64,000 nucleotides of DNA from contig CP084619.1 in assembly GCA_025917655.1 (NCBI GenBank), positions 3,143,001 through 3,207,000 of the forward strand, read 5' to 3'. Numbering within the stretch: position 1 is the stretch's first letter; the number at the start of each line of letters is the position of its first letter. The position numbers and the translations under genes were made by a program. This document shows positions 20,438 through 51,046 of the stretch, piece after piece. The notes beneath the pieces were generated by a model, which was not told the DNA's origin, searched no databases, and was given only the letters and a program-made list of their open reading frames with translations. Source of the DNA: Chlorella sorokiniana. Taxonomy: Eukaryota; Chlorophyta; Trebouxiophyceae; Chlorellales; Chlorellaceae.

Positions 20438-21651
20438 ATGCTCACGCTTGCGGTCGCAGTGGGCTCGCTGCTGCTGATATTGGCCGGCGTGGCGCTGTTC
20501 TTAAAGAATTCCAACAGTCGCGGTGCTGATCAGCGTGATGCAGGGCAGCCACAGGCGAGTGGGGCTTGCCCAACGAGACTTGCCGGCAGTTTTTCGAGCC
20601 TTGAGTGCTGGTCCGGAGCCTTGATGCTTAGGCTTGGCTTCCGCCACAGGAACTGGACATGGGTGCGCCCGCCCGGGGCTTGAATAGGCCGGGTGGCGCG
20701 GCGCGCGGCGGCGGCGGCGGCGTGCAGCACCATCGGACGAGGAGGATGAGGAGCAGGTGACAGACCATGCAGTTCAGTCAACCCCTCCATTAAATGTAAA
20801 CGGTATTTCCCAGGTTTTCAGTAAGCTTTATAGCGGTCTTGTACTCCACGCAGGAGGAGCAGCAGCGTGCCGAACCCGCACCCCGTCAAGTTACTGCTCG
20901 AGACGTAAGCGCACTGCTCAGGGCCACAAACCTAAGTTGGCTACCGTCCCCACCGGAAGCAGTGCTTGAAATGAATGGTCGTCGTCAGGATACCTGTTCA
21001 CAGCCTGGCCTGCGTTTCTTGTGCCTGACAGGCATATGAGGCTCGACGTGCCGCCCGCGAAGCAGAGCGCGAAGCGCAGGAAGCTGCGCAGGAGGAGGAG
21101 ATCCGACGCGCAGCAGAGGAGCGGCAGCGGCGTGAGGAACAGGAGGCTTCCAAATGGATGCATCTCTTCTCGGTGGAGGCGGCGGGCGAGGAGGTGCTGT
21201 CACAGGAGGAGGGGAAGGCGCTGGAGGCACGCTTTGTGGACTACATCAAGCGCCGCAAGACGGTGGCCCTGGACGAGCTGGCAGCCGAGTTTGGCATGCG
21301 CACCCAGGCCGCCATCAAGCGCGTGCAGGAGCTGGAGGAGTGCGGCAGCATCACTGGCGTCATGGACGACCGTGGCAAGGTGAGGGGCGGTTGAAGCAGG
21401 CCACCGCCAACCACGCTGCACACGGTGCCATGCACACGGCACATGTCAACTGACAGATGCTGCCCTGTAACGCTGTGCAGTTCATCTTCATCAGCCCTGA
21501 AGAGATGCAAGCTGTTGCAGACTTCATCCGCCGGCGTGGTCGCATTGGAATTGCCGAGCTGGCAGCAAAATCCGATCAGTTTGTGGACCTGGAGGCAAAG
21601 CCAGCGGCACTTGAAACGGAGTTTGCAGCCGCCATTGAAGTAGAAGCATGA
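20438..21651 (+). CDS. DDRGK1: DDRGK domain protein (UFBP1)
   Basis: UFBP1 is an ER-membrane adaptor of the UFM1 ligase complex (UFL1-UFBP1), acting in ribosome UFMylation and ER quality control. Exons: 20438..20554, 20650..20756, 20854..20904, 21032..21379, 21481..21651. It starts with an ER membrane anchor (LTLAVAVGSLLLILAGVALF). Next come a basic/acidic linker and a long charged helix (AREAEREAQEAAQEEEIRRA). The conserved C-terminal domain reads EEGKALEARFVDYIKRRKTV, TQAAIKRVQELEECGSITGV, MDDRGKFIFISPEEM (containing the eponymous DDRGK) and RRRGRIGIAELAAKSDQFVD. Intron 1 appears to be GC-AG. Exon 2 has an apparent one-base break inside a GGC repeat near 20700-20725. TGTAA follows 41 nt after the stop. 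Confidence 0.92.
20555..20649 (+). other. GC-AG intron 1 of DDRGK1
   Basis: The donor is CCACAG|GCGAGT and the acceptor GCCACAG|GAAC. Only this donor keeps the frame into ELDMGAPARGLNR. A GT three bases further changes the frame. Confidence 0.5.
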
Positions 21652-27900: not shown

Positions 27901-30900
27901 GCCAGCCGCTGACGTCGGTGGAAGAAATGGAGGCCGCTTTCTGGAAGCACACCGAGGTGGGGCGAGGCAGCGGACCACAGACCTGAGGGCTATCTTTGCA
28001 GATGCAAGCTTGCAGAGAAGAAAGCCGCCGCAGGTGTTAAAAGCGCAGCCGCAGCAGCGCTCACGCAGGCCGAGTGCGCGCCCTCCTGGGCCCCCGGGCA
28101 CCCTCGCGCAGGCTGGTCAGGCACTGCTGGCACAGCTGGAGGGAAGCCCCTTCCGGCCACAGGACTGCCCGCCCGGCTCCCTGGCAACTTCCCGCTACGC
28201 CTCCTCCTACCTGCGCCTCACCAAGCTTGTTCTGCTGCGGCAGATGCTGCTGAACAGGCGCGACAAGGGCTTCTACATTGCCCGCGCGGTGCAGGTGGGT
28301 GGTATTGTGCTGTCTTAAGGTGCTGTGGGCCCAGGAATGGCGCAGGGGAGGTGCGCTGGCAAGAGCACAGCTTGCAAACTGCGCAGCCCTGCCGTTATGC
28401 CGGCCCAGGCCTGCCCCGTGTCCCCTTGCAACGGCCCTGCCCTCGCTGCCCCCGCGCAGGCTGCGGTGCTCACGCTGATCATCGGGTCGCTGTTCACGGG
28501 CCTGGACCCTACCACCCAGGACGCGCGCCAGGTCATGTCGTTGTCATCGCTCAGCACGCAGACCATGGCCATGATGTCCACACCGCAAATCGGGCTGGTC
28601 TTCCAAACGAAGCGGTGGGTGAGCGGCATGTTGGAGGGAGGTGGGGGCGCATGCAAAGGGGGCAGCATCAGCGGGGAGAGGAGAGGTGCAAACACGCCCG
28701 CCGCGAATCAGTCGTTGTGCCGGGGCCAGCAGGGCGCCGCAGGTGCGGCCCCAGTTGCCACCACTCACCCTTTCTTGTTTGCCACCGCGCGCTGCAGGGT
28801 GTTCTACAAGCACCGCGACAACAATTTTTTCCCACCGTTTGCATACGTGCTGACCCTGGTGCTGACGCAGCTCCCCCAGTCAACCTTGGAATGCACAATC
28901 TACAGGCAAGCTCTGCAGGGGGCGCCGCTGTCCCTCTCCTAGTCCCCCGACATCACTCACACACTGCCGCACCCCCTGCAGCCTGGGCGTGTACTGGATG
29001 AGCGGCCTGATGCGTACCGCCTCCAACTACTTTCTCTTCCTCGTCGTCATCTGGTCCATCAGCAACGGTGCGGGGTGGAAAGGGGCAACGGTGGTGGTGG
29101 CGGTGGGCCGCGAACGAGGTGGTGGAGGCTAGAGGGGTGCATGAGGGCCTGCTCGCACACGCGCTCTCCTTGCGTCACACACCCCAGCTGTCATCAACGG
29201 CGGCGGTGCTCCGCCGCCCATCGTGCAGCCATGGCGGCCTTTTACCGCCTGATCGCCTTCTCGGTGCCGTCCATGGTGGTGGCCAACGCAGGCGGCGGCG
29301 TGGTGAGTGCGCTGTGACGGGGTGCGCGCTGCTCGTGCGTTTGGGTAACCAGAGACGCCCGCAACCCAGCGCCGCTCGCGGGCCCGCCCTTCCTTGGTGT
29401 GCAGGCGCTCCTCTTCCTCATAGTCACCAACGGCTTCAGCATCGTCAGGTGGGGCGCAGCATGCGACGTGCGCTGCGCCGCGGCGTGGCACACCCGCAGC
29501 ACCCATCAGTGTCCTCCTTTCCCACTGGGCTCGTGTGCAGGACCTCCATCCCTACTTGGCTAATCTGGGTTTACTGGTGCGTGGTGCCCCCCGTGCTGCC
29601 TCCGTGGTGTGTATGGCATGACGCGGGCACTTGTGTGCCCCCTCCCCTCCCCTGCCCCCCAGGTGCAACCCGCTGGCCTGGTCCGTGCGGGCGCTGGTTG
29701 CCAACGAGCTGGGCAGCTCCCGCTGGGACACACCCGCCGGCAATGGGCAGACGGGTGGGGTGATGCTGCCTGGCTGTCCGCCCAGTGCTCGCAGCCATGC
29801 TGTGGGGCCGTGAGGGCGGTCGTGCTGCGCCTCCGGCATGCCCGTTTCATGCCAGGGGTTTGGTGTCCCCACCGCCCGCGCAGTGGGCCAGGCGTCGGCC
29901 GACGCGTTTGGCTTCTACTTGGGCGCGGAGTGGATCTGGGCGGCGGTCGGCTTCAGCTGGTTCTGGCTGCTGCTGTGCATGGCAGCGGGCGTGCTGGCCC
30001 TGAGCCTCACAAACCCGCCCACCCCCAGGCCCACAGGCGAGCCAAGCATGCGTGGGCGGGGCTTACGTTGCCTGGTTGCATGCTTGTTGGTTGTCAGGAG
30101 CGCTGCCCCCTCCCTCTGCCTTGCCGCAGTGGCTGAGGCGGAGCAGAAAGAGGCAATCAGGCGCGGCCTTTTGCCCAGCTGCTGAGAGCGGCAGGTGGCA
30201 CAGCGCGCCGCACGAGCCGCCTGGCCTCAACCACAATGAAGAAGGTGCTGCGCGGGCTTGCCGCCTGCCGCCTTGGCCCAGCGGCGCCTGTGCCAGCCCT
30301 CAGGCTCCTGTTGCCTTCCTCACCCGGCTTGCTGCCGCCCCGCAGGTGGGCTCCAAGGTTGCCCGCGCCGCCTCCTCGCCTGGGCTGGAGCAGCCCGCCA
30401 CGGATGAGCTGGAGCAGGCTGACTCGGCGGCGGGCCTGGTGCACACCGCAGCGGTGATTCCCTTCGAGCCCATCACGCTGGTTTGCCGCAACCTGAGGTA
30501 GGGCCGGGCCGGGCATGTTGCCTGGGTCAACCTTATGGGGCGCAAGTGTGCAGTCTGGATGATGTGGGCTGCCCCTACATCACCATGGACAGGTACTACG
30601 TCGACGACCCCTCCGGCGGCGTCGCCCGGGTGTGGTCAAGGACAGCGACGACCGAGAGATTGCCGGCAAGCTGGAGCTGCTCAAGGTGGGGGTGCAGGGG
30701 GAGGTTGGGTGGGCCGGGCAGAGCGCCCAACAGGGGAAGGCTGTCGGCGTAGCTGCGCAAACCAACCCTCCCCACCTTCGCCCACCCTCCCCTCTGCCCC
30801 CACCCCACCCACAGGGCTTGGACCTGTACGCTGAGCCCGGCTCGCTCACTGCGCTGATGGGGGCAGCGGCGCGGGCAAGACAACCGCCATGGATTGCATC

Positions 30901-33900
30901 CTGGGGCGGAAGACGACGGGCATCATCCGCGGAGACATCCTTGTGAATGGGCACCCAAAGGAGCAGGGCCCATGGTCGCGTGTGTGCGGGTGGGTTGGGA
31001 GCGAGTGGGGACCACCCCCTCCACAGCGGGACCGCAGGGGCTCCCTGGCAGCGGGCTGGGCCTCCTTGCTGCTCCCCCTTGCTTTGCACACAGCCTGCCC
31101 TGCCCCACCGCCCACCCTTGCCCACCCACACGCCACGGTCATCCACCTACTCGCCAAGCCCCCCAACCCCCAACCCTACACACACCCTGCCTCACCCCTG
31201 CGGCAGGTACGTAGAGCAGAGCGACATCCACAGCGCGGGCACCACGGTGCGGGAGGCGCTCGCCTTCTCCGCGCGCCTGCGCCTGCCCGAGGCGTCTGTT
31301 GGGGCTGGCGAGCTGGGCGCGGTGGTTGACGACACGCTGGCGGTGGTGGACCTGACGGGGCTGCGCGACAGCATCGTGGGGAGCCCGGTGGGTGGGGCGG
31401 CGGCACATGCCTGGGCCTGCACACCTGCGCCTCGGGGCACCTGCCCGCCTCTGTGCATGCCTGTGTGTGTGTGACAGACAACAGGGGAGGGCCTGCCGGC
31501 GGCCACGGGCACAGCCGCTTGCCGTTGCATGTTGAGCGGTGCTGGTCTGCGTGGGCTGCCTGCAGGCGGCGAGGGCCTGAGCGTGGAGCAGCGGAAACGC
31601 CTGTCCATCGGTGTGGAGCTGGTGGCCAACCCCAGCGTGGTGTTCATGGTGTGTGGTTGTGTTGGGGTGTGGGGGAAGGGGTGTGTGTGGGGGCGCGGGG
31701 GAAGGGGAGCCGCGCTTTCAAGGCACGCAGCCACCACTGGCTCATGATGCCTCTTACCGCCACCCCGTCGCCCGCTCAGGACGAGCCCACCAGCGGGCTG
31801 GATGCGCGGGCCGCAGCCATCGTGATGCGCGCCATCAAGAACGTCAGCCTGAGCAACCGCACCGTGATGGTCACCATACACCAGGTGGGCGGCTGGCGGG
31901 TGGCGGGTGGCCGCACCCCGGGGGCCCACCCGCCTGCCTGCCTTCCTGCCCGTGGACGCGTTGCCCCCACCCCACCACCCCTTTGCCCCCTCCCCCCTCT
32001 GCAGCCCTCCATGGAGCTGTTTGAGGCGTTTGACGTGCTGGTGCTGCTGCAGCGCGGCGGGCGGCTGACCTACTTTGGGCCGCTGGGGGAGGAGAGCAGC
32101 ACGCTCATCGTGTACCTGGAGGGCCAGCCGGGGTGGAGCCCATCCGTCCCGGCTACAACCCGTCCACGTGGTAGGCAGGGGGTGAGGGGGATGGTGGGCC
32201 CGCGCTGCGCAGGCAAGCCAGGCTGGCTGGACACGGGCGGCGTGTTTGTGCCCTCTGCCTCCCCGCAGGATGCTGGAGGTGACGGGGGCAGCACCAGCAC
32301 CACCTTCGCCAGCTCCGACCAGGACTTCCCCACCCTCTACGCCGCCAGCGAACTGAGCCGCCAGAACATGGCGCGCATGGAGCAGCTGGTGGAGGAGGGC
32401 AGGAGGGACCACGAGCCGCTGAGGTGCGCGGCCCAGGGGGCCGGCGGGGGCGCGGGCAGCTGGTTGTGCGGCCCAGGGGGGCCTGGTCCCTGCTGCCTCC
32501 CCAGCCTTTCGGGGGCCGCTGCCAGTCCAACATTCTGTCATGCCCGCCCCCAGGCTGGCCGCCGAGTACGCCACCGGCTACAGGACGCAGACCGGGGTGC
32601 TCCTTCGCAAGTTCTTCCTGCTCTACTGGCGCAACCCGAACTACAGTGAGCGCCCGCCCGGCCAGCCCGTGGGGCTCCCAGGGCAAGGAGCCCGGCAGGA
32701 GCCCGCCCGTGCATCGCCGCCCATGGTCCAGCCCTGTGCCCATTCGGTTTGTGTGGGCTCCATGGCGACCAAGCACTTGCACGGAACCCACTCTTGTTCC
32801 CTCGATTCGCCCTCTGTTGCCCGCAGACTTTGTCCGCTTCACCATGACGGTGGCAAGTGCGTGAGCCATGCGTTCGCGCAGCAGCTGCATGGGTTGCATA
32901 TCAGCAAGGTGCCCTCGCCGGCCTTCTTCTGCCACCCGACATGCCGCCGGCCTGCTGCCCCTGGCCTGCAGTCGCAATCATCCTGGGCCTGGTGTACATG
33001 GGGCAGGTGAGGAGGCACGCCAGCCCGCAGCTGCGCTTCACCGGCGTCACGCCCCTCCACGAAGCAGGCCTTCTGTGCTCTTGCCGCGCATGCTGCTGAG
33101 GCACGCGTGCCACCCCACCCACCCTTGACCCGCCACCGCCGCAGGGCGATCTGGATCCGGCTGGCAGCGATGTGGCCACGGTGCAGAACATCATGGGCCT
33201 CATCTTCGTGCTCACCATTTTCATGTGGGTGCAGGTCCAGGGGCGGCCTGCATACTCGTCTCTCGGCAGCCCGCACGGTGTCGCTAGATGACCCGCCCCC
33301 GGACCGGCCCATCCACCCACCCGCAGGGGCATGTTCAACTGCATGACAGTTCAGCCAGTGATGGGCGCCGAGCGAACCGTCTTCTACCGAGAGCGCAGCT
33401 CTGCCTACTACGCGCCCGGCCCGTACGCTGTGGTGCGCACGGCACTTGCCCCAGCAGCGTGCAGGGATGAATGGCTTGCTGCTGGCCCAGAGTCAATCCC
33501 GCCTCCCTTTGCCCGACCCGTGCAGGCGAGCGGGCTTGTTGAGGTGCCTTACCTGGCGGTGCAGTCGCTCCTCATGGTCTGCATCTCCTACTGGTGAGCC
33601 GCCGCTGCCGCCCGCCCTGGCACTGTGACGCCGCATGCGCCCATGTGCCCCGGGCCCCTGGCACTCCACGCTGCAGCGTGTCTTGCTGCCTGCAGGTTGG
33701 TGGGCTTTCAGGCGGTGGCCTGGAAGGTGGGTGACAGGGGCGGGGCCACCACGCTCGTGGTGTCCAGTGGTTGGAGCAGCGTGCCTGGCCTGCAGTGCTG
33801 GCCCTCACAGGCCACGCCATCCCCACCCGCTCCCCACGTGCTCCCCTCGCCGCAGTTCTTCTACTTCCTCCTCGTCTACTTCCTCAGCCTCACCCTCTTC

Positions 33901-34512
33901 ACCTTCTTTGGCCAGTTCCTGGTCTTCCTCACCCCCAACCAGCTGCTGGCCCAGCTGCTGGGCGCCTTCCTCAATCAGATATGGACCCTGTTTGCCGGCT
34001 TCCTGGTGCCCTACCCCCAGATGCCGGCGGTGAGGGCCGCGCTTGCGCTGAACCTGCGTGCCCGCCGCCCACCACCTTGCAACCGAAGCGGAAATGCCCA
34101 CCGTGCCTGCAGGGCTGGAAGTGGCTCAACCGCATCTCCCCACCACCTGGACGCTGTACGGCCTGGCGGGCAGCCAGCTGGGCGACCGCGACGTGCCCAT
34201 GCAGGGCTACAACGGCAGCACCACCGTCTCCGTCTTCATGCTGGACGCCTTTGGCTACGACTTCGGCATGATCTGGTGGTGCGCACTCATCGTCGCTGCC
34301 TACTGCATCTTCTTCAGGGGTGAGCCGTCCGGGCTGGGGGGGGGGGGGTGCTTCAGCGCAGAGGCTAGTGGGTGTCTGTGCTTGGTTATGTCTGCAGGCG
34401 GGGTGCGGTAGTGAACCGAACCGTTGGTGCGGGTCGCACATGACTGGCTCCCCCGTCTGTCGCAGGCATGTCTACCGTTTTGCTCAAGTATGTGAGCTTC
34501 TTGAGACGGTGA
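24959..34512 (+). CDS. Full-size ABCG/PDR transporter
   Basis: This is a pleiotropic-drug-resistance ATP-binding-cassette exporter, plasma membrane in plants, with the reverse order NBD-TMD-NBD-TMD. More than 30 short exons fill about 9.5 kb. NBD1: [13 protein letters not shown] (Walker A, about 26000), [16 protein letters not shown] (signature) and [12 protein letters not shown] (Walker B, about 27110). TMD1 spans about 28170-30030. NBD2: [12 protein letters not shown] (about 30860), [17 protein letters not shown] and the [15 protein letters not shown] Walker B (about 31640-31820). TMD2 spans about 32560-34510 and includes [20 protein letters not shown] and [18 protein letters not shown]. 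The protein ends [14 protein letters not shown]-specific blocks ([25 protein letters not shown]) are clear. One-base breaks occur at 27597-27604, about 30625, 30858-30863, 32129-32133, 32284-32288 and about 34138-34142, nearly all in G or C runs. One exon near 28000-28100 is uncertain. The substrate is unknown. Confidence 0.9.
28906..28981 (+). other. GC-AG intron in the ABC transporter
   Basis: The donor is CTACAG|GCAAGC and the acceptor CCTGCAG|CCTG. The join reads [17 protein letters not shown] in the transmembrane domain. A second possible GC donor (CCACAG|GCGAGC at 30037) in the same gene is less certain. Confidence 0.65.
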
Positions 34513-34728: not shown

Positions 34729-37575
34729 ATGGATTTGCGCAAAGCGCTCGGCATTGTCGACTACAGCGCGGAAGAAAATACTGCAAGCTTCGAGGTTTAT
34801 CCAGAGCCCGGAAGTGCGTCAAGCTGCGGCTGCGAGGCTGCATTCCCACCTCGTTCTTTTGGGGCTCTTCAAGAGCCCCGCTATCATTTGGACAGCTTGA
34901 TGGCTCAAGGATGTGGCAGCGGAATTTGCGATCAAGAAGCCCTGCATGCGTGCAGGTCTAACGGGGACGAGCTGGCGGCGGTCCGAGCGCAGCTCCTCGA
35001 CCACCTGCTGCCTTTCCTGGCAGGCTACATCTGGCAGCGCGACCGCTTCTCCCTGCAGCTCTCAACGCAGCAACTCCCACACTGGCATCGCAGGACCGCT
35101 GCAGCGCGCAGCGAGCGGCGGCAGGGCAGCGCCGAAGCGACTCCGCTGTCGCGCGGCGAGGCCGCCGAGGCTGCGCCGCCCTTCCTGTGGGGCTCCCTCG
35201 GCTTTGGCGACAACGTGGAGGACGAGTGGTTTGCGGTGTGGCTGCTGCTGGAGCTGACGCGCGCCTTCCCCGTCACCGCCAGGTGGGACAGCCCCTGACA
35301 CCGGGGGGCACAGCGGAGCCTGCTGTGCGCTGACGCCACCCGCTGCTCACCGCCCCCTCCGCAGGGTGTGGGACAACGACGGCGAGTTCCTGCTCATAGA
35401 GGCGGCCTACGGGCTGCCCCGGTGGCTGAAGCCGGAGACGGCTGCCAACCGCGTGTGGCTGCACGCCGGCGCTTTCCACCTCGTGCCGCCGCCGCGCTTT
35501 AAGGGTGGGACACTCGAATACGCTGCGCCGCGCCAGCTGGCTGCCCACCCGCATGGCCTTCCCTATGGACTTGCTCTCCTCCCTGCTGACCCGCCCGCTG
35601 CCGCTGCCCGCAGGCGATCCGCTGCTGTCGCCGACGCCCAGCCTGGCGCAGGCGCTGGCGGCAGTGCGGGGGGAGGTGCCCACGCTGGCGCCGCCCGCCA
35701 TGCAGTCCCCGCTGCTGGACCGGCTGGAGGGCTACCCTCAGCGCGCCAAGCACAGCATGCATGTCGCGCACGCCCTGGTGCCCGCCCGCGTGGCGCACCT
35801 GCTGCGCGGCGAGCCTCAGCTGCTGGCGGCGGCGGCGGAGGCCTTCCACTACCGCGACCCCGACGATGCGCGGGTGGGTGGGTGCGGCGGGCCCCCACGC
35901 CCCCTGCCGCCGCCGCTGCCGCCCCCGCTCCCACAGCCAGCTGGCCCTGTCATTGGCAGCTTGCACCCGGTGTTGCTCCGCTGTCGGCGGGTACCCCCCG
36001 AATGCTTGCTGTCCCCTGACAAGGCAGCGGTGCTGGCACGATTTTGTAGCCTGCTGTGCCCCCCCCACCCTCCACCCCCCACCCGCAGGCCGCCTCCCGC
36101 ATGAGCGCCTTCCCTCCGCGCGACATGGTGCTGGCCGCCCCCACCTTCTCCCGCTGCCTGTACGCCCAGCTGGCGCTGCAGGAGTATGCGCCGCCGCGCG
36201 GCTACCCCCTGCCGCTGCCCAGCGAGCCGGGCTACCGCGCCGCGCTGCTGGGCCTCAAGCTCACCGCCGGGTTTGAGATGGTCTTGGCCAACCGCGCGCT
36301 ACGGGTGGCAGGAGGAGGGGGAGGAGGGGCAGGGGGAGGGGGAGGGGCAGCAGGCGGCTGGGCAGAGCGGCGCCGCCAACCTGGCGGGCCACCCCGGCTG
36401 GGCAGCCTTTGTCGGGCGCCTGCAGGCAGCGGGCTACTTCCGCGGCAGCCTGCCCGGCTCGCAGCAGCACACGCGCCTGCTGAGGCGGCGGCGGCGGCCA
36501 GCTACAGCGGCGCGGAGGCGTATCGCCGGGCGGCGGCGGCCCTGGCGGCGCCTGCGGTGCGCGCCGAGCAGCTGCTGGAGCAGGCGATCGACCCGGCCAG
36601 CTTCCCGCCCCCGACCAGCTGCCCGCGGAGGGCAGCGAGGACTGGCTGGCGGCGCAGGCGGGGCAGCAGCTGGAGGCTGAGCTGGCGCGGCGGCAGGCTG
36701 AGCTGCAGGCGGGGATGGGGCGCCCGCAGCGCGGCGGCACCCACCCAGACGGCGGCGCTGACGAGGCGGGCGGCGAGTACGACCCGTCTGAGCTGGCGGG
36801 CAGGCTGCGCGCGTTTGTGGACATGGCGGCGGGGCTGGAGGGCGCGGAGGTGCCGCAGCCGGGGGCTGAGGCCCAGCCCGCCTCAGGCCTGGCGCTGGAC
36901 GAGGCGGCCTTTGCCGCGGAGCTGCGCCGGGTGCTGGGCCTGGGTGCGGCGGCGGCGCGGCGCCAAGGCCTGGGCGGCGACGACGACGGCGACGACTCGT
37001 CCGACGAGGGCTCGTCCTTCTTTTCCGGCAGCGAGGCATCGGAGGACGGGGAGGAGGAGGAGGAGGGGGAGCAGGCGCACAGGAAGGCACCCAGCTCGGG
37101 GGGCCAGCTGCGGCAGGCACCGCCGCGTGCGGCCGCTCCGCGCGGCACGGCACCCGAGCGCGGATGCCGGCCTGGGGGAGCGAGGGCGGCAGCGAGGGCT
37201 GGGAGGCCGACACCGCCACCGACAGCGACGACGACGCCGCCTTCATGCACGCGTATAGCGGGGCGATGGACGCGCAGCTGGCGGGCACGCGCATGGCGCA
37301 CAGCTTCCAGCGCGCGGCGGGCAGCGGGGAGGCTGCGCATGGGCAGGCCGGGCAGGAGGAGGGGGCGCCGGGGCAGGCTGGGCGGGGGCGGGGCCGGGGG
37401 AGGAGAAGCCCGCCCCTCTTCGCTGCAGCTGCGCCCGCTGGACCTGGATGTGAACCTGGTGAGCAGCCTGCTGGCGTCGTACGGCGAGCAGGCTGGGCTG
37501 CCAGGCCCCGCGGGCAGCCTGGCGGGCCTGCTAGGCGTGGAGCTGCCGCCGCCGCAGCCGCCGTCGCAACGCTAG
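34729..37575 (+). CDS. ECD: Ecdysoneless (ECD/SGT1-family) protein
   Basis: ECD is a conserved eukaryotic factor tied to pre-mRNA splicing (PRPF8 stability) and cell-cycle progression in animals and yeast. Exons: 34729..35282, about 35366..35504, 35614..35873, 36089..37575. Family blocks: LLDHLLPFLAGYIWQRDRFS, GDNVEDEWFAVWLLLELTR, VWDNDGEFLLIEAAYGLPRW, RLEGYPQRAKHSMHVAHALV, FSRCLYAQLALQEYAPPRGY, GFEMVLANRAL, GWAAFVGRLQAAGYF, an acidic SDDD-rich region, and the C-terminal signature LDVNLVSSLLASYGEQAGLP. The start Met begins the well-conserved N-terminus. The GC-rich last exon needs about five one-base frame adjustments (about 36300-36360, 36475, 36610, 37160, 37400) although every conserved block is present in order. 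This points to sequence errors in G/C repeats. TGTAA lies 67 nt after the stop. Confidence 0.88.
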
Positions 37576-39115: not shown

Positions 39116-42100
39116 TCAGGGTTGGCTGGCAAAGGGCACGCCGCCGGCGATCAGCGCGTTGGCGCCGTTCAGCTGTGGCTGCAGCAGGTGCTGCGTGGGG
39201 GCGGCGTGGCGCCGGAGGAGCGCGGCAGACGGCCCGCCTGCCGCAGCGCGCTCAGCGTGTGCTCCGACGACTGCACCCGCGGCAGCGGGCGGCAGCACCA
39301 CGGGGGGGCACGCCCAGCGCGTGCGTGCCTGCAGGGGAGGCTGCCGCTGCTGCGGCCGCCGCCGCCACCGCCGCCGCCAGGTCAGCGGAGCCCATGGCGC
39401 CGCTGGTGGGCAGGCTGCCCAGGGGGTGGGCGAGGGCGCCGACACCTGCAGGCCGGCGCTGATTGGGGGCCCAGGGCGGCTGGCGCCGAGGCGGCGGATG
39501 CTGAGCTGGCAGCGGAGGCCAGGCCCTGGGAGGAGGCTGGGCGTGAGAGGGAGCGAGAGGCTGAGCCGGGCGCGGTATGCCCCCACACGTCCGCACATGC
39601 GCTGCGCCGCCTTGATGGCCACCGACAGCTCGGGGTGGACATGTCCTGGTAGCCCGTCAGCTTGGCCAGCATGGAGGGCCAGAAGGGGATGATGCCGCGG
39701 GAGCGGCGCTCCACGTACAGCAGCGCGGCGGCAATCACCGAGGGGCGGCAGTTCAGGAAGGCCATGTCGGTGAGGCAGCCGGTGACCTGGGCGGGGTGGA
39801 AGGAAAGGGGGAGGGGCTCCTCAGGCGGGTGCAGGGACGGCATGCGGGGGCCCGGCGGCCCCAGCCCACGCAGCAGAGCGCGCCGGCCCCTGGCGCCCGC
39901 CCAGCGGGCGTGCGGGGGCGCCCTCACCAGCTGCGCCACCCTGCCGGCCATGGCTGCCGCGGCGGGTGCGTCCAGGTGGTTGGCCCCCAGCCGCTCCAGG
40001 AAGAGGCGCAGGCAGCGCAGGGTGGAGATGGCGGCGGTGTCCTGCGCCAGCACCTGCCGGATGTTCCACTCCATCTGCTCCACCGCCGCGGGGGCAGCCC
40101 GCTGGCGGCGCCCACGTCGGCGTCGGGGGCAGGGGGGCAGGCCGCCCGCGGGGCCGTCCACCTGCTTGGCGGCGATGACCACGCAGCCCACGGCCAGCAG
40201 GTGCAGCAGGTCGGGGGCGAGGTGGAGGGAGGTGGACATCACGCGGTCCATCAGCAGCACCGCGTCGTGGCCCGCCTCCTCGCGCACGCCCAGCCTGAGG
40301 GGAAAGAAGGTGCGTGTGAGCGTGCATGCGTGCCAAGGCTGCTCCGGCGATAGGAAGGTGCGGGGGGCACGTGCGGGGGCGGGGCGGGGAGCGCATGCAT
40401 GCAACGAGCCGAGACACTCGGGAGCGCACAGAGCCTGCCCAACCCTTCCCCCTCTGCTCACCCGGCAGCCACCTCCAGGCACTTGGCCACCAGCTCGTTG
40501 CGGCGCTGCAGGTAGGCGCAGCCCATGTTCTGCAGCGCCAGGCAGTGCGTCTTCTCAAAGTGGCGCACGGCGGCAAACGCCTCGCTGCACCGCTGCTCCA
40601 CGCTCGCCTGCAGCTCGGGAGAAAAGGGGGCGTGGGCGGTGGCTGTGAGGGCTGCACAGCACTTGCTTGCAAGGTGGTGCACCACGCCAGGTCCACACCC
40701 ATCCTTGCTGGGGGTCACGTGCACGCCTGCCCACCAGCGCCCAGCACCCACCCCCCCCCCCGCCCCCTGCGTCCACCCACCTCCTTGGAGCAGTCTGGGT
40801 CGTCCAGCAGCGCCGCCACGCCCTCCCGCCCCACCCCGTGTTGGCCGCCGAGGGCGTGATGTCGGTGCAGGGGAAGAAGGTGAAGAGGCGCGCCTCAAAG
40901 CCCTCCGACAGCAGCCACTCGCAGGCGTCCGGGCCGCACGCCTCCAGCATGCCGCTGTAGGTGCCGTCAATCACGGGCCTGCGTGGGGATGGGAGGGCAC
41001 TGTGGTGTGAGAAACGCCTTGTGCGGGACCTGACGCGGGTGGGGCGCAATGAGCACACAGCGCTGCAACAAGCAGCTGCGCCTGCTGCGGGTCCGCGCCT
41101 TCAGGCCCCCACCCCCTCCCTTCAAGCTCGGCGCACCTGAAGGGCGCGCCCCACAGCGCCATGGCCGCCGCCACCGCCTCCTTCACCACCAGGTTTCCCT
41201 GCTCCTTGGCCCCCTTGCCGCGGTCGGTGACCACCGCCAGGCGCAGCGGCAGCGCCCGCCCCGTGCTGCACCAGCAGCTGCTTGAGCGAGACGAGCCAGG
41301 CGTAGAGGGAGAGCATGGCCACCCCCGCCGTCATGGCGTGCAGGTTGACCTCGGCGCGGGCCAGCCCCGGCACCAGCTTGCCCTGGTGGAAGTGGCCCTC
41401 CTCCACGGCGGTCCTGCACAAAGACACACCAGGGGGGTGGGTGACACGCCGTCGTCGCATGCCGACCCCCCGCCTGGCAAGGCGCAGCCCGGCTGGCCGC
41501 CAGCACGCTGGCCGCACCCCGCCCGCCCGGCTCAGCGCCGCACCTGAAGAGGCGGAGGGCGCGGCGCTGCACCCACACCACCCCCGTCTCCCACAGCGCA
41601 TCGATGATGGCGTTGTAGACGATGGCGTCGGCGCGGCACCCCTGCGCCTTCATGCGGTCGTATGCCTGTGGGGAGGGGGCCGGCAGGGGGTGTGTGTGCG
41701 CGGGTCAGGCATCAGCAGCCGCCAGCAGGGGGCAGCGGGTATGGAGGGCAAGGGGCTTGGGGCAGCCGGCTGCGTGGGTGGCGAGGCAGCGGCGCACCTC
41801 CAGCGCCAGGCGCCACTGGCCTCCCTTCTCAAAGGCGGAGATGAGGGCGGTGTAGGTGACGACGTCGGGGTTGCAGCCCTGGCCGTGCATCTGCTCAAAC
41901 ACCTGGCTCGCCTTCTGCCACTGCGCGCCCTGAGCCAGCGCCGTGATCAGGCTGTTGTCTGCAGCAGGGGAAGGGAGCACCACAGCATGGCAGGTTGGCA
42001 CTGCGCTGCAAGGCAGCGCAGCGCACAGCACCGCAGCGGCCCGCTGCGGGCACGCCTGACACGGGGATCCGCGACAAGCGACGGCGTGGGCGGCGGGCGG

Positions 42101-44438
42101 CGGCGCCCACATGTGACGGTGTTGGGGGTGCACTGCTCGCGCAGCATCTCCTGGAACAGCTCCAGCGCCAGCTCCCACTGCCCCGCCTTCTCGCAGGCAG
42201 AGATGAGGGAGGAGTAGGTGATGACGGAGCGCTCGCAGCCGCGGTACATCATCTCCTGCACAGGCGGTACAGGCGCAGGACGGAGGGAGAGAGTGAGTCC
42301 ATGCATCGTGTCGCCGCCTGGGGTGCTCTGTCCGTGGGCCCCCACACACACACCACCCCTTCATAACCCCCAACACACCTCACACACACCACCACATGAG
42401 CCCCGGCACCGCCGCCAGCGCCCACCTGGAACACCTCCATGACCTTGTCCAGCTGGCCGGCCTTGCCGTAGGCGGAGATGAGGGCGTTGTAGGTGGTGGA
42501 GTTGGGGAGTAGCCCTCCTCCAGCATGCGGCGGTACACAGCCATCGCCTCGCGCGGCTGGTTGCACATGTTGCACGCAATGATGAGCGTGCTGCGGGCAG
42601 GGGCGGGTGTGTGGGGGGGGTGTGAGAGGTGGGGTGGGGGTTGCGAGAGGTGGGTGGGGTGGGGTGAGGTGAAGAACCAGGTCAGCCGTGTGTGTGTCCA
42701 TGTGAGATGAGCTGCGTGGAAAGCTGTGGCTCCTGTACACAAGGCAGGCCCCCAGCCGCATGGCCCGCCTCACTTGAAGGTGCGCAGCACCGGCTCCACC
42801 CCTCGCTCTTCATCAGCGCCAGCACATTCACCGCCTCCTCCCAGGACCCCATTTTGCCGTACACGTCAATGAGGGTGTTGTCTGGGGGAGTGGGCGCAGG
42901 GCGGCAGGCAGGCGTAAGGAGGGGAAGGAGGAGTTGAGGCGCCCTGGCAAGTTGCCCAGCGCATTCCCTTCAGCACACGGCAGGCAGCGCTGCGCGAAGG
43001 CCAGGACCGCCGCCGGCAGCTCACAGGTGACGACGTTGGGGGTGCACTTGTCCTGGCGCATGAGCTTGTACGTCTCCAGGGCCAGCGCATGCTTGGAGCA
43101 CTTGATGCACACGTTCATGAGGGCGGTGTAGGTGTGCACGTTGCGCTCAATCCCCTTGGACTTCATCTCGCCCGCCAGCTGCGGGAGGGCAAGACCACAC
43201 GGGGGTGCAGGCATTGGGGTCAGCGGCGCGGGAGGTCGAGGAGCAGGGCGGGCAGGGTGGCTGCTGTGGAACGGGCGTCAACGTCGGCTGCCTCGTCGCG
43301 GCCCCCCAGGCCCCCAGGCCCCCCACCTTGAGTGCTCGGTCCACGTCGTGCTCGGTGATGCAGAGGGAAATCATGGCGGTGTATGAGTAGACGTCCAGCA
43401 GGGACTGCAGGGGGTGCCCCTCATCCAGGGCGCGGATCCAGTCAAACAGCTCGGTGGCCCTGCGGGGGGAGCAGCAGCGCGGCCGCGTCAGCAGCGATGA
43501 CACAGCAGAGCGGAGCGGGGCGGGGTGGGGGCAGGGCCGGAAGGCGGGCCCCAGGCCCCGCAAGCTGCAGCCCTTGATGCATGCGGAGCATGCTGCTGGC
43601 GGCAACGCATGCAGCCCGCCAGCAAGTTGCGCCAGGGCACAGCGGTGCCGCAGCAGGCGGCGCTATGACACCATTGCGCCAAGCAGCAGCAGGCAGCCAC
43701 GCAACTAGCCGCAGCCGCCCCACCCCCGCCGTTCCCTGCAAGCGCCCAGCTCCCACCTGAACTGCATGCCCGCCTTGGACAGGTCTTTTAGCAGCAGGGC
43801 GCACGAGCGCCCGTCCAGCTGGAACAGCGCCTGGTAGACGGTGTCGGTGATTGGCTGCGAGGCGGGGATGCCCCCACCAGGGCCACCAGCCCATCGATGG
43901 AGAGGCCGTCGTGCGGCGTCAGGCCGTTGCCGCCATTGCTGGAGTCGTAGCCCCTGCGGAATCCGCGACGGCCGCTGCCAGAGCTGCTGCCTGCATTTTG
44001 GGCGTTGCCGCGCCCGCGGCCCCGCCCCGGCCGCCCGCCGAGCTGCCGCGCGCGCGCGGCTCTTGCCAAACCACGGCGCTTTGAAGGTGCCATTCTCGGT
44101 GATCGCCTGTCCCCCCAGCCCATGCTGTGTGGGGGCGCAGGAGCTGCTGCTGCCGCATATACGCTGCTAGTCGCGCCATTGCGATAAGGGGCTGCCGCAG
44201 GTGGTAGGGCGGTCGCCGCCGCCGCAAATTGTGCAAACTCAGGGGCCAGCCCTGGAGCTACCGCGGGGAGCGCCATCATGCCGTTCGTTACTGCTACTGG
44301 ATTCCATTCGTTGTGGACTGCGGGCTGGAGCTTGGCAGCCTGGACTGTGCTGTGGTGGGGCAGGGTGGAGCCATTCAGCGAAAGGCTGCCCACCAAGCCA
44401 GCAAGGGCCGCATCTGGCCCATCCCAGGAGCGCTGCAT
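39116..44438 (-). CDS. PPR-SMR-cyclin fusion protein
   Basis: Thirteen minus-strand exons: 43757..44438, 43327..43459, 43025..43178, 42774..42881, 42426..42590, 42111..42255, 41798..41958, 41544..41665, 41137..41413, 40781..40978, 40462..40607, 39928..40294, 39116..39786. After an Arg/Gly-rich N-terminus (ATG at 44436-44438), about eight PPR repeats are visible, e.g. VHTYTALMNVCIKCSKHALA, STTYNALISAYGKAGQLDKV, VITYSSLISACEKAGQWELA, DVVTYTALISAFEKGGQWRL. Many introns split the repeats at TY/N. Next comes an SMR-like domain (AEVNLHAMTAGVAMLSLYAW ... VVTDRGKGAKEQGNLVVKEA ... ALWGAPFR), a linker (GTYSGMLEACGPDACEWLLS), and a cyclin box (RRNELVAKCLEVAAGLGV, AVLLMDRVMSTSLHLAPDLL, VGCVVIAAKQ, RPSVIAAALLYVERRSRGI, LAKLTGYQDMSTPELSVAIK). 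PPRs bind organelle RNA; the cyclin role is unknown. One-base breaks lie near 39645, 40840, 41260, 42506, 42800 and 43868. The exact C-terminus is uncertain. Confidence 0.85.
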
Positions 44439-45433
44439 TACTCCAAGAGACTGTGAGGGGGTGTGGCTGTCAGAAGCTCTGCAGGTGGACGTGTGGGGAT
44501 GGGGAGCGCGATGGGTGGGCAGAGCGCCCCGCAGCCGCCACTTGCAAGGCGTGCAGCCGGGGCTGTGCCCTCACAACGCAAGGAGCGCGCATATGAAGTG
44601 CGTACAGCCCCGCTCGCCTCACCTCTTCTCAACCAGCCATTGGAGGTGAGCAGTCCGGTGCGTTTCTTGAAGACCAGACCTGTGTTCTGTGATATGTGTG
44701 TGTTGAAGAGCAGAAAGGAAGCAAAAGTCAGTCGCAGGGCGCCGGGCTCTGACAGCCACTAGCTCGGCTGCACATGCGGCAGCCAAGCGAGCACCCACCA
44801 CCAATGAGCCACCCCCTCCCAAAGCTTGTTCCACTGTACCCAATATTCCTTTATTGCCATTCTTGTCTAAATAGACGACCTCCGTCCATGCGTGAGGGAG
44901 GCTGGGGGTTGAACTTAGTTCAATTTCGACACGCCGGCTCCTTCAGGGCACGAACGTCCACCGGAATGCCAGGAGCGTCCTTGAATATTGCCGGCATGGG
45001 CAGACGGCTGCCGATGCCGCCGGTTTATCAGGTTGCACTTGCTGGCAACAGCGTTTCGGAAAACAGTCCCAACAACATTCTTGCGCTGCTTTCTGGTGTA
45101 ATTGGGTTACACTCTTCACAGGGCAAACAGCTTCGACTTGCTCGACCAAAGCAAGCGCTCCTGTGCTGGCTGCACCGTGTGTGCGGCCACAGGGCTTCCA
45201 AGCAAACCGGTTGGCGCCTCCCGGCGAAGTAGGAGTGTTCTCATGCACCAGCCAGCTGTTGGTAATGTGTCGGTCTGTGAGGGGCATTCGGGAACAACAC
45301 GCCAGTGTAGAACCGCTGGCGGCAGTCGTGCTAGGCATGCCAGGGCCATGACGCCGCAGAGGCTGCAGCTAAGCTGACGCCAGCACGGCGGTCATGCCGC
45401 CATGGCAGGCCACGCAGCGGGCACGCCGTGCGC
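44439..45433. other. Intergenic, PPR promoter and RPL10A 3' side
   Basis: About 1 kb between two minus-strand genes. It should carry the promoter of the PPR-SMR-cyclin gene and the RPL10A 3' UTR. A minus-strand TGTAA (plus-strand TTACA) is at 45107-45111. Short ORFs here resemble nothing. Confidence 0.4.
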
Positions 45434-47001
45434 TCAGTAGAGGCGGTAGGGCTTGCCCATGGAGCTCTTGATGTACAGCGACTTGACGTTCTGCCAGTTC
45501 TTCTTCAGCAGGGACACCAGGAAGTTGATGGACATCTGCTCATGGCAGGAATCAGGGGGGCCAGCGGGGGCACAATTGGGGGCTGCAGCCAGTAACAGCG
45601 TGCACCTCGTGCATAGCTGGCCAGCTAGCACACACCACATGCACACATGATGGGCAAGCTTTCCTTGCCAAACAAACAGTGATGAGCCTGCAGACAAGGC
45701 AGCATCAGACAGCGCTGCACGCACGCCCCCTCCTTCCCCCACCACACCACCCGCGGCCACCGCACCTGGATGTTGACGTACAGCTCGCGGTCGGACATGG
45801 CCACGTTGCCGACGGCCACGCCCAGGCACAGCACCTTCTTCAGCTGGTACTTGACAGAAGAGCGGATCTCGTTGATCTTGTTCTCCAGGGAGTCGTTGTG
45901 GGTGATGAGGGTGGGGAACTTGCCCGCCTTGTTCAGGCCGGGGCCCAGCAGGCGGGGAATCTGCTTGATCACAGAGTCAGAGGCCAGGAAGGCGGCGTAC
46001 TTCTTGGCTGCAAGGAAGGGTGCGGTTGGAGGGGGCGACCAAGCGGTGAGTGCGGGTGTGGGTGGACGGGGATTGGGGATAAAGCACAGAGCATGTTGGT
46101 GCGGGCCGCACTGCCGCCACCCAGCGGCTTCGCCAGACAACTTACCCAGCTTCTTCACCAGCTTCTTGTTCTTGTTCAGCTTCTTCAGATCATCCACCGT
46201 CATGGCGTCCACACCGAGGGCCTTGGCCTCCTCGCAATGCTTGTGGTCACCCAGCACGCACACCTGAACAGCGCAGCAGCAGCAGCAGCAGGCGCAGAGC
46301 AAAATGAAGCATGCTTACCAGCAAAAAATCACATTGCATGTAGGGTACCTTCTGGCTTGTATGCAAGGCTGCAGATTGCTCTTTGGCGGATGGGCACAGG
46401 CAAAGATGCTGCACACCTTCATGTTGGGGCGCGGGCAGTAAGGCAGCTTCACGGAGCCGCTGAAACGCTTGTCCTTCTGGGGGTCATAGTTCTTCAGGCC
46501 AATCTGCAGCTCCACAGTCTCGGTGAACTTGCGCTGCTTCTCCTGTGCGCCGCCCAGCACGCCTGCACGTGAAAGAGTTGCAGCGGCAGCCACCGCTGGT
46601 CGGCAAGGCGCGTTGCGGTGTGGCAGTGCCATTGCCAACGCTGCAGCCCGGCTGGGCCGTTGCCTGCACTAGAACCGGCTGGTGAAGGCTGCCTGTTTGC
46701 CGGACAACTCGCTGGAGCAGGGGCTGGGGTGGCATGCTGGCCGGCAGGTCGGCAGCCCCAAGAAGCGCTTTGAAACCCACCCGTGATGCCATCACGCAAC
46801 ACTTCGCCTATAGACAGAACAGGGAGGCCATGGGCAGGCAGCGTCACGGTCGGGCGTTCCACCGGGAAGGGCTGTACAGCAGCTAGCATGCATTCTGGAT
46901 GCTCCCAAAAGCAGCGGCACGGCTGCAGGGGCTGCACGCTGCATCGCGGACCAGGACTGCAAAATGCTCAACTGTGTTGGCATACCTGTAACCTTGCTCA
47001 T
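45434..47001 (-). CDS. RPL10A: Cytosolic ribosomal protein uL1 (RPL10A)
   Basis: This is the L1-stalk protein of the 60S subunit, contacting E-site tRNA. Exons: 46986..47001, 46781..46808, 46417..46562, 46146..46263, 45768..46007, 45434..45535. The first two coding exons are only 16 and 28 nt and encode [14 protein letters not shown]. The rest is highly conserved: [120 protein letters not shown] and the C-terminus [18 protein letters not shown]. It has no frame break. Total length, about 216 residues, equals the family norm, which supports the tiny exons. The start codon lies 182 bp from the divergent CSL4 start. Confidence 0.95.
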
Positions 47002-47183: not shown

Positions 47184-48208
47184 ATGGCAGAAGCGCTCAT
47201 CACTCCTGGGGAGCGCTTGGCACTCGCAGTGAGTCGCTTCAAAGGCTTTGTGCGCCCATGGATGTCTGGAGGCATTGATCACTGCTTAGCAGGCGGGACA
47301 TACAGCATTGAACTGGCACAGCGACATGGTCACTGCGGCACCGCTCGTGTGCACCCTTGTGACTGTTCCCTTGCTCCCTTGCTCCCTGGCAGGCAGAGTA
47401 CGAGCCTGGCGCAGGCACCTGCGTGAAGGACGCCTTCATCTGCGCCACGCTCGTGGGAACCAAGCGTGTGCTGCCGGCTGCGGAGGGCGACCAGCTGCCG
47501 CGCGTGGACGTGCTGCGCGCGGGGCTGAGCCCGTGGTGCCGCGTGTGGGCGACCTGGTCACCGCGCGCGTGGTGCGCATCAACCCGCGCCTCGCCGCGGT
47601 GGACATTCTGTGCGTTGGGCCGCGGCCGGTGCGTCAGAGGTACAGCGGCGTCATCCGCACGCAGGACGTGCGCGCCACAGAGATCGACAAGGTGCGCGGG
47701 TTCGAGCCCGCGGCCCGCTGCCCAACGAGGGCAGGCCTGACTGCCGTGCACAGCTTGCACAGCGCCAGGATGCATGCAGTGCCAGCTGGGTCTGGATCGA
47801 ATGACTGCTCCCATCCGCACCTGCTTCCCTCTGCCACAGGTCAGAATAGAGCAGAGCTTCCGCCCAGGCGACATCGTGCGCGCCGAGGTGCTGTCCCTGG
47901 GTGACGCGCGCTCCTACTTCCTGGGCACCGCCCGCAACGAGCTGGGGGTGGTGCACGCCAAGAGCGTGGCGGGTGCGCCGCCGTGCCCAGCCTGCTCATG
48001 GGGGCCCGGGCGCAACGTGCCTTGCACAACAAGCTGACCAGCTCGCCCTTCGTTGCAAGCAAAAGCCAGCACGCTGCCCCTGACCCCCTTCCATCTCCTG
48101 ACTGACTGCGCTGCAGGCGTGCCGATGGTACCGGTATCCTGGCAGGAGATGCAGTGCCCCCAAACCAAGGCCGTGGAGAACCGCAAGGTCGCCAAGCTGG
48201 AGGCTTGA
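47184..48208 (+). CDS. CSL4: Exosome core subunit CSL4
   Basis: CSL4 is an S1/zinc-ribbon cap subunit of the RNA exosome (EXOSC1), acting in nuclear and cytosolic 3' RNA processing. Exons: 47184..47228, 47393..47691, 47840..47972, 48117..48208. The N-terminal domain starts LITPGERLALAAEYEPGAGT and runs DAFICATLVGTKRV. The S1 domain reads VPRVGDLVTARVVRINPRLA, YSGVIRTQDVRATEIDKVRI, SFRPGDIVRAEVLSLGDARS, YFLGTARNELGVVHAKSVAG. The C-terminus, MVPVSWQEMQCPQTKAVENR, matches the family ending (PISWCEMQCP in animals). A one-base break lies near 47520-47530 in a CG/G-rich stretch, between DVLRA and AEPVVPRVGD. Only 156 bp separate its stop from the ALG13 start, so the two transcripts may overlap or share a processed end. 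Confidence 0.92.
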
Positions 48209-49864: not shown

Positions 49865-51046
49865 ATGGAGACGCTGGGCCGAGAGGACCTTGAAAGGCGA
49901 GACTTGTACTAGTTATGTTTTAATCAGCAGGATACAGGGACTCATAGGCCAGCTTCGCGCCATGCAGGCTCATGTTCTTTGAGCAGGCCAAAGATCAGGC
50001 GGAGCGCGAGTGGAAGGCGAACAACAAGGATGCCATGGTGATTTAAATGCTCCTGTTGTGTTATCAGCGTCCAGCAGTCTGCTGTGGGACGGCAGCGCCA
50101 AGCCGCCTCTGCGTCGAGGAGGGGCGGTTGGCTGCAAGCTTTCCTCGACCATACCTTCAACCTCTGGCCCCAAGTGGCCATTATTTGGCGAAGGGTAGGG
50201 AAAGGTAGATATACAGCATGTTGATGTCCTTGTGGTTGCCCCGCCTGGTTTGTTCAGGCCCTGACTAAGTGGGGCGGTGCGCTGCTGGAGCTGGCTCACT
50301 TTCGGCAAGGCGGCGAGGCATACGAGATGATCGAGGAGGCCATTGCCAAGTTTGAGCAGGTGTGCAGCCCAACATGGCAGCAGGGTTAATGTTTTGGGGC
50401 TGTGGATAAGCTTTGCTGTTACTCGGCTGCTAGCTGCCCACCGCTTCCTGCACCCTGCCTTTACGCAGGCGCTGGGCATCGACGGCAAGCGGCACGACGC
50501 GCTGTGGTGCCTGGGCAATGCCTACACCTCGCAAGGCTTCCTGTCTGCGGAGGCTGTCGCTGCCAACCAGTACTTTGACCGCGCGGGGAGTGCTTCCGCA
50601 AGGCGGTGGACCTGGAGCCTGGCAACGAGTCGTACCGCCGTGCCCTGGACATGTCGGGCAAGGCGCCGCAGCTCTACCAGGAGCTGCAGCGGCAGCTGCA
50701 GGCAGCCAGCACGAGTGGCGGGTCACCGCGTGCCGCCGAGCCGCGTTCCACGCAGAGCAAGCAGGTGGGCTGGGATGCACTGGACTGATGGCTCGTGTGG
50801 ATGCCAAGTGATGCAGGGCTCAGAGGCACAGCAGCAGCGCGGGTTTTTTTGTGACTCGCATTGCCACACGTCCCTCACTCTCCCAATTGCTTCCGCTTTC
50901 CAAGCCCTGTCCGCTCTGTCATTACTGCGCAGAAGCCTGTCAGCGACTTTTGGTATGATGTGGCCGGCTGGGCCTGCCTGGTGGGCATTGTCTTCGGCGT
51001 GGCGGCGCTTTCACGCAGCAATGCAGCCACCCCACCCTCCGCCTGA
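49865..51046 (+). CDS. TOM20: Plant-type TOM20 import receptor
   Basis: This is an outer-membrane receptor for mitochondrial presequences. The plant/algal form is tail-anchored and unrelated in topology to animal TOM20. Exons: 49865..49896, 49968..50037, 50258..50359, 50469..50764, 50933..51046. METLGREDLERLMFFEQAKD opens the protein. TPR-like helices follow (TKWGGALLELAHFRQGGEAY, MIEEAIAKFEQALGID, HDALWCLGNAYTSQGFLSAE, AVDLEPGNESYRRALDMSGK, APQLYQELQRQLQAAS). A variable linker leads to the C-terminal anchor WACLVGIVFGVAALSRSNAA. A GC-AG intron joins exon 1 to exon 2, giving the expected residues; starting instead at the Met of exon 2 would lose the conserved lead. A one-base break occurs at the G run 50585-50588. 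TGTAA lies at 51108. Confidence 0.92.
49897..49967 (+). other. GC-AG intron 1 of TOM20
   Basis: The donor is TGAAAG|GCGAGA and the acceptor CATGCAG|GCTC. The join reads METLGREDLER-LMFFEQAKDQ, aligning with the plant TOM20 N-terminus. No GT donor fits this frame. Confidence 0.65.

What the first reader, a model, noticed from the sequence alone, without database searches (positions are those of the whole stretch)
39116..44438. PPR-SMR protein fused to a cyclin box
Eight or so PPR repeats and an SMR-like domain are followed, in the same spliced frame, by a recognisable cyclin box. PPR proteins act on organelle RNA while cyclins activate kinases, so one polypeptide could tie organelle gene expression to a kinase or to the cell cycle. 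I recall PPR-cyclin proteins being mentioned for green algae but cannot verify it. The presence of an SMR-like block between the two is the part I would call least described.
Basis: partly seen in the sequence, partly recalled or inferred. Interest (0 to 1): 0.8.

Follow-up and report, generated by a model that had tools for sequence, protein, structure and literature searches.

The report
Green-algal PPR-SMR-cyclin fusion gene
This is a gene, probably of a green alga, that joins an RNA-binding repeat tract and a nuclease-like domain to a cyclin; such fusions are already named in algae, but what the cyclin part does is unknown.

Summary
On the minus strand, from 44438 to about 39.1 kb, 13 exons (GT-AG introns) encode nine 35-residue PPR repeats, an SMR-like domain and a two-fold cyclin box; Cyclin_N and Cyclin_C pass Pfam's cut-offs on the bridged model. 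"Same spliced frame" is not literally true: six frame changes lie inside exons, five next to C/G runs. A neighbouring TOM20 gene is cleanly broken in the same way, so I read them as sequence errors, not decay. The SMR is divergent (VNLH for LDXH, TDRG for TGXG) and Pfam's Smr model does not hit it. The cyclin keeps the residues aligned to K266 and E295 of cyclin A2; its substrate-docking patch is changed. Chlamydomonas PPR4 and PPR6 are already named "PPR-Cyclin protein", and PPR4 is a photosynthesis candidate gene, not predicted chloroplast-targeted. I recall, but could not open, Tourasse et al. 2013, which describes the same PPR-SmR-cyclin order. Verdict: a new member of a known, functionally unstudied kind, most likely a factor for photosynthetic gene expression with a cyclin-type binding module.

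The parts
43757..44438 (-). exon 1: low-complexity N-terminus with a basic KRR/RGRG stretch, then start of the helical region; one frame change near 43862
   Evidence: start codon inferred, upstream exons not excluded
41392..43392 (-). nine P-type PPR repeats of 35 residues (exons 2-9, introns included in this span); frame changes in exons 4 and 5
   Evidence: Pfam PPR_2 8.8e-85; repeat table; ends checked
40873..41349 (-). SMR-like domain (exons 9-10, one intron): VNLH at 41338-41349 for LDXH, TDRG at 41217-41228 for TGXG; frame change near 41254
   Evidence: alignment to PAP2 and to a recalled GUN1-like SMR; motif table in PMC6662315; codons checked
40781..40978 (-). exon 10: end of SMR and linker to cyclin; frame change in a G-rich stretch near 40828
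39632..40556 (-). two-fold cyclin box (exons 11-13, two introns included in this span)
   Evidence: Pfam Cyclin_N 5e-06 and Cyclin_C 2e-07 on the bridged piece; cyclin A2 alignment 77 vs best of 2000 shuffles 62
40165..40167 (-). Lys codon aligned to cyclin A2 K266
40069..40071 (-). Glu codon aligned to cyclin A2 E295
39116..39786 (-). exon 13: second cyclin fold, then a low-complexity tail with further frame changes; stop at 39116-39118 uncertain

Best explanation
One nuclear gene, probably of a green alga, encodes a PPR-cyclin. Nine P-type PPR repeats bind a short organelle RNA (code reading 5'-A A n C C/U A U G n-3'). The SMR domain, with its RNA-cleaving TGXG motif changed to TDRG, most likely serves as an RNA- or partner-binding part, not as a nuclease. 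The C-terminal cyclin box is a real cyclin that uses the conserved Lys-Glu pair to bind a kinase (or kinase-like partner) without the usual substrate-docking patch. The whole acts as a factor for expression of photosynthetic genes, with the cyclin as a regulatory or scaffolding module. Shown: domains, order, residues. Inferred: one transcript, RNA target, compartment, kinase binding, photosynthetic role, and the kind of organism.
For: PPR and cyclin profile hits; nine 35-residue repeats with code residues. SMR aligned with PAP2; TGXG is needed for RNA cleavage in SOT1 (PMC6662315, passages). Cyclin A2 alignment through both folds, K266 and E295 kept. All 12 intron junctions of the hand-picked model crossed in frame, no Met in the cyclin frame before the middle of exon 11, exons 10 and 11 only 173 nt apart, no TGTAA on the minus strand between 45107 and 37880. 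Chlamydomonas Cre12.g511400 (PPR4), 'Cyclin-related protein with PPR domain', is in the list of 253 higher-confidence photosynthesis genes from acetate-requiring mutants (PMC8448359 Table 2). rps4 and psbF are code-suggested targets of Chlamydomonas PPR3 and PPR6 (PMC8635915).
Against: No transcript evidence. Six frame changes, one between SMR and cyclin. The N-terminus does not look like a transit peptide, and Cre12.g511400 is scored 'O' (not predicted chloroplast). Orthology to PPR3, PPR4 or PPR6 was not tested: no algal sequence could be fetched (0 relatives in two viral-contig scans and one genome-contig scan). Cre12.g511400 is a candidate from insertion mapping; that paper validated two other genes. 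No kinase partner was found in the passages read. Repeats 3 and 9 have no clear code residue pair.
Confidence: 0.5

Rival explanations
1. A nuclear or cytosolic PPR-SMR-cyclin: the protein binds nuclear-encoded RNA or acts as a CDK subunit and affects photosynthesis or division indirectly.
For: No transit-peptide-like N-terminus in the first 60 residues of the model, by eye; a basic KRR/RGRG stretch follows. Chlamydomonas Cre12.g511400 is scored 'O' for localisation. Residues that meet the CDK in cyclin A2 (recalled) are kept.
Against: The start codon is inferred and an upstream exon is possible. All four Chlamydomonas PPR proteins that have been characterised are in the chloroplast (PMC8635915). 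Listing of Cre12.g511400 as a photosynthesis candidate.
Confidence: 0.25
2. Two neighbouring genes, a PPR-SMR gene and a cyclin gene, wrongly joined.
For: The frame change between SMR and cyclin in exon 10.
Against: Intron-sized spacing, matching splice phases at exons 10/11, no Met in the cyclin frame before the middle of exon 11, no TGTAA between (TGTAA is near chance frequency). PPR-cyclin fusions are named in Chlamydomonas.
Confidence: 0.05
3. A decaying pseudogene of a PPR-cyclin.
For: Six in-exon frame changes. The ribosomal L1-type gene upstream shows both its profile stretches in one frame, so breaks are not everywhere.
Against: Splice sites intact, no stop inside the pieces read, the two broken repeats have exactly 35 residues once bridged. 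TOM20 in the same window carries the same kind of break cleanly; a CSL4-like gene probably and an SGT1/ecdysoneless gene possibly do.
Confidence: 0.09
4. The cyclin fold is a pure protein-protein scaffold (as in TFIIB-type cyclin folds) and binds no kinase.
For: Docking patch changed (M210 to R, W217 to K by alignment); the region between the Lys and the Glu is low-complexity. phmmer of this piece finds no cyclin of the PDB at E<=1.
Against: Pfam gives Cyclin_N and Cyclin_C and nothing else at E<=1 on the cyclin piece; Lys-Glu pair kept.
Confidence: 0.3

Closest known systems
Green-algal PPR-cyclins (Chlamydomonas PPR4 = Cre12.g511400, PPR6 = Cre10.g437150; PPR3 by recall)
   Same: PPR tract plus cyclin in one protein (PPR4 and PPR6 named 'PPR-Cyclin protein'); 9-10 PPR repeats against 9 here. 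SmR before the cyclin is recalled from Tourasse et al. 2013, not read.
   Different: Not compared by sequence: no algal member could be fetched and the species of the window was not identified, so this may be a direct counterpart of one of them.
Land-plant PPR-SMR proteins (GUN1, pTAC2/PAP2, SVR7, SOT1)
   Same: P-type PPR tract followed directly by an SMR domain; alignment to PAP2 SMR.
   Different: The review of this group describes the SMR as C-terminal and does not contain the word cyclin (PMC6662315, abstract and search). TGXG here is TDRG; pTAC2 has SVRG, GUN1 TGWG.
CDK-activating cyclins (cyclin A2)
   Same: Both cyclin folds align; Lys and Glu kept.
   Different: Substrate-docking patch changed (MRAIL to RRNEL, W217 to K); fused behind PPR-SMR.

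Membership tests
P-class PPR proteins | tandem 35-residue PPR motifs | tested here: met
   PPR_2 8.8e-85, PPR 1.8e-63, TIGR00756 8.4e-74; nine repeats of 35 residues
SMR domain proteins | profile match to Pfam Smr | tested here: not met
   no Smr hit at E<=1 on the whole model or on the isolated block
SMR domain proteins | sequence similarity to a known PPR-SMR domain after the last PPR | tested here: met
   PAP2 SMR 62 vs best of 2000 shuffles 49, over 47 residues; 8w9z_E weaker, 53 with 1 of 2000 shuffles as good
SMR domain proteins | LDXH motif | tested here: not met
   VNLH here; plant members vary too, e.g. INLH in At1g74750
SMR domain proteins | TGXG motif (RNA cleavage in SOT1) | tested here: not met
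   TDRG; pTAC2 SVRG also lacks it
Cyclins | Cyclin_N and Cyclin_C profile matches above the curated cut-offs | tested here: met
   26.7 bits (cut-off 23) and 31.5 bits (cut-off 22) on the bridged piece; on the raw frame Cyclin_N is 18.5, below the cut-off
Cyclins | Lys and Glu of the CDK interface (K266, E295 in cyclin A2; role recalled) | tested here: met
   both kept in the alignment
Cyclins | binds and activates a CDK | not testable with these tools
   needs biochemistry
Green-algal PPR-cyclins | PPR tract and cyclin in one polypeptide | tested here: inconclusive
   splice model supports it but one frame change in exon 10 lies between SMR and cyclin; no cDNA
Green-algal PPR-cyclins | orthology to PPR3, PPR4 or PPR6 | not testable with these tools
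   no algal protein could be fetched

The most novel reading that the evidence does not exclude
A GUN1-like PPR-SMR module that senses plastid RNA (or plastid state) is fused to a kinase-binding cyclin, so that algae carry plastid-to-cell-cycle coupling in a single protein: a direct, one-gene link between chloroplast gene expression and a CDK.
Probability: 0.12. Interest if true: 0.8.

Novelty: new member of a known kind. Interest (0 to 1): 0.3.

Why it matters
PPR-cyclins join an organelle-type RNA-binding tract to a cell-cycle-type module, and no function of the cyclin part turned up in the passages read here. The kept Lys-Glu pair and the altered TGXG motif give two sharp, testable predictions (kinase binding yes, RNA cleavage no) for a family with one member already on a list of photosynthesis candidate genes.

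Tried and rejected
Whole-genome search of the window's own genome: not held. The species was not identified; 'green alga' rests on the plant-type TOM20 match and on the domain order. NCBIfam gave PPR as the only relevant one of 4 families. Structure predictions without an alignment were poor (SMR mean pLDDT 63.9; cyclin 43.2), so no fold search was run. The promoter and terminator scan of 40500-41200 found none but is for bacterial signals. TGTAA is close to chance in the window (32 found, mean 22.42 expected, 6 shuffles of 100 as many), so its absence inside the gene is weak evidence.

Literature searches, with papers found: 'PPR-cyclin' 1; 3 of 4 terms on PPR, green algae, cyclin domain, SMR domain 3 (not opened); 'PPR-SMR' + 'Chlamydomonas' + 'cyclin' 1 (there 'cyclin' is the start of 'cycling', whole word 0); 'PPR' + 'cyclin domain' + 'Chlamydomonas' + 'chloroplast' 0; 3 of 4 terms with 'SmR domain' 90, 20 listed (beside the papers already open I opened PMC8448359 and PMC4624840, the latter irrelevant); the two Chlamydomonas gene numbers 1 and 2; 'pentatricopeptide' with 'cyclin domain' 0, with 'cyclin box' 0. 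Tourasse 2013 and Cavaiuolo 2017 are not held. PMC13126933 has no 'cyclin'. PMC9368121 pairs plant genes named SMR11 and SMR4 (SIAMESE-related, as I recall, not the SMR domain) with PPR4 and PPR6; I take this as a clash of abbreviations and drew nothing from it.

Full report
What is there. The gene lies on the minus strand. From an ATG at 44438 thirteen exons run to a stop at 39116-39118, with twelve introns of 130-297 nt; I picked the exon ends by hand so that every intron is GT-AG. Read in the frame that makes sense in each piece, the protein is: a low-complexity N-terminus; nine P-type PPR repeats, each 35 residues; an SMR-like block; a linker; a two-fold cyclin box; and a low-complexity tail whose end is uncertain. 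The organism was not identified; a plant-type TOM20 match and the domain order point to a green alga.

Frames. The spliced sequence is not open in one frame. Six changes were placed, all inside exons. Five have the sense of one missing base and lie in or next to a run of four or more C or G; such runs make up 6.2% of the first 2861 bases of the model. One (exon 9) has the sense of one extra or two missing bases. All twelve intron junctions are crossed without a change. The two repeats that contain a break are exactly 35 residues long once it is bridged. A hand-picked list of coding-like segments shows 14 close frame changes outside the gene and 4 inside it; one of the 4 inside is the start of exon 4, so such a count includes exon ends. 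With Pfam on both sides the clean case is TOM20: profile 58-99 in one frame, 101-158 in the next, at a GGGG run. A CSL4-like gene (ECR1_N, then EXOSC1, again at a GGGG run) is probably broken in the same way, and an SGT1/ecdysoneless gene (230-300, then 309-344, the second piece below its cut-off, no run) possibly; in these two a short intron is not strictly excluded. Against this, the ribosomal L1-type gene at 45700-46266 gives both its profile stretches in one frame. I conclude that the breaks are most likely errors of the sequence, not decay.

PPR. Profile hits are overwhelming (PPR_2 8.8e-85); PAP2/pTAC2 of the plastid RNA polymerase is among the best natural matches in the PDB, through its PPR tract. 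The code residues (rules from memory and from passages of PMC8635915) read A, A, ?, C, C/U, A, U, G, ?. Without an organelle genome of this species no target can be named.

SMR. Pfam Smr does not hit. Pairwise, the block aligns directly after the last PPR with the SMR of PAP2 (62, best of 2000 shuffles 49; 47 residues) and less clearly with 8w9z_E (53, one shuffle of 2000 as good). The motifs here are VNLH and TDRG. In SOT1 TGXG is needed for RNA cleavage and LDXH for DNA cleavage (PMC6662315, passages), so a nuclease is unlikely, though pTAC2 (SVRG) shows that such domains persist without the motif.

Cyclin. Both Pfam cyclin domains pass their cut-offs on the bridged C-terminal piece; on the raw frame Cyclin_N alone stays below its cut-off (18.5 of 23). 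The alignment with cyclin A2 scores 77 against a best of 62 in 2000 shuffles and runs through both folds. The Lys and Glu that correspond to K266 and E295 (CDK contacts, recalled) are kept; so by position are R211, D240 and L255 (read by eye). The docking patch is not: MRAIL reads RRNEL and W217 reads K. The stretch between the Lys and the Glu is low-complexity and may hide two compensating frame changes.

One gene or two. Exons 10 and 11 are 173 nt apart with matching phase. The cyclin frame has no Met before the middle of exon 11. No TGTAA lies on the minus strand between 45107 and 37880, though that signal is near chance frequency. The frame change in exon 10 is the weak point.

What is known. 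PMC9368121 (one table passage seen) names Chlamydomonas PPR4 (Cre12.g511400) and PPR6 (Cre10.g437150) 'PPR-Cyclin protein'. PMC8448359 (part 1 of section 14 and passages) lists Cre12.g511400, 'Cyclin-related protein with PPR domain', among 253 higher-confidence photosynthesis candidates from acetate-requiring mutants, localisation 'O', with marks for the maize and Arabidopsis mutant libraries. PMC8635915 (passages) gives PPR3 nine motifs with rps4, and PPR6 ten with psbF, as code-suggested targets, says that PPR3, PPR4 and PPR6 are not studied yet, and contains neither 'cyclin' nor 'SMR'. [quoted passage not shown] If so, the exact architecture has been in print since 2013.

Verdict. A real nuclear gene, probably of a green alga, and a new member of a known but unstudied kind. 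Two added points are residue-level: the RNA-cleaving SMR motif is altered and the cyclin's kinase-contact pair is kept.

Noticed in passing
50436-50785 (+): TOM20_plant homologue split by a frame change at 50585/50588 in a GGGG run.
   Followed up: yes
36071-37110 (+): SGT1/ecdysoneless homologue with a possible frame change near 36291-36310.
   Followed up: partly
47390-47718 (+): Probable exosome CSL4 gene: ECR1_N then EXOSC1 in another frame, at a GGGG run.
   Followed up: partly
45700-46266 (-): Ribosomal protein L1-type gene just upstream on the same strand, with TGTAA at 45107-45111 as a possible end signal.
   Followed up: partly
39787-39927 (-): Intron 12 (141 nt) is open and in frame with both flanking cyclin exons, so its retention would insert 47 residues.
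   Followed up: no
28397-34056 (+): ABC2-type membrane transporter pieces; elsewhere a DDRGK-domain gene at 21086-21382 and a cysteine dioxygenase at 8727-9026.
   Followed up: no
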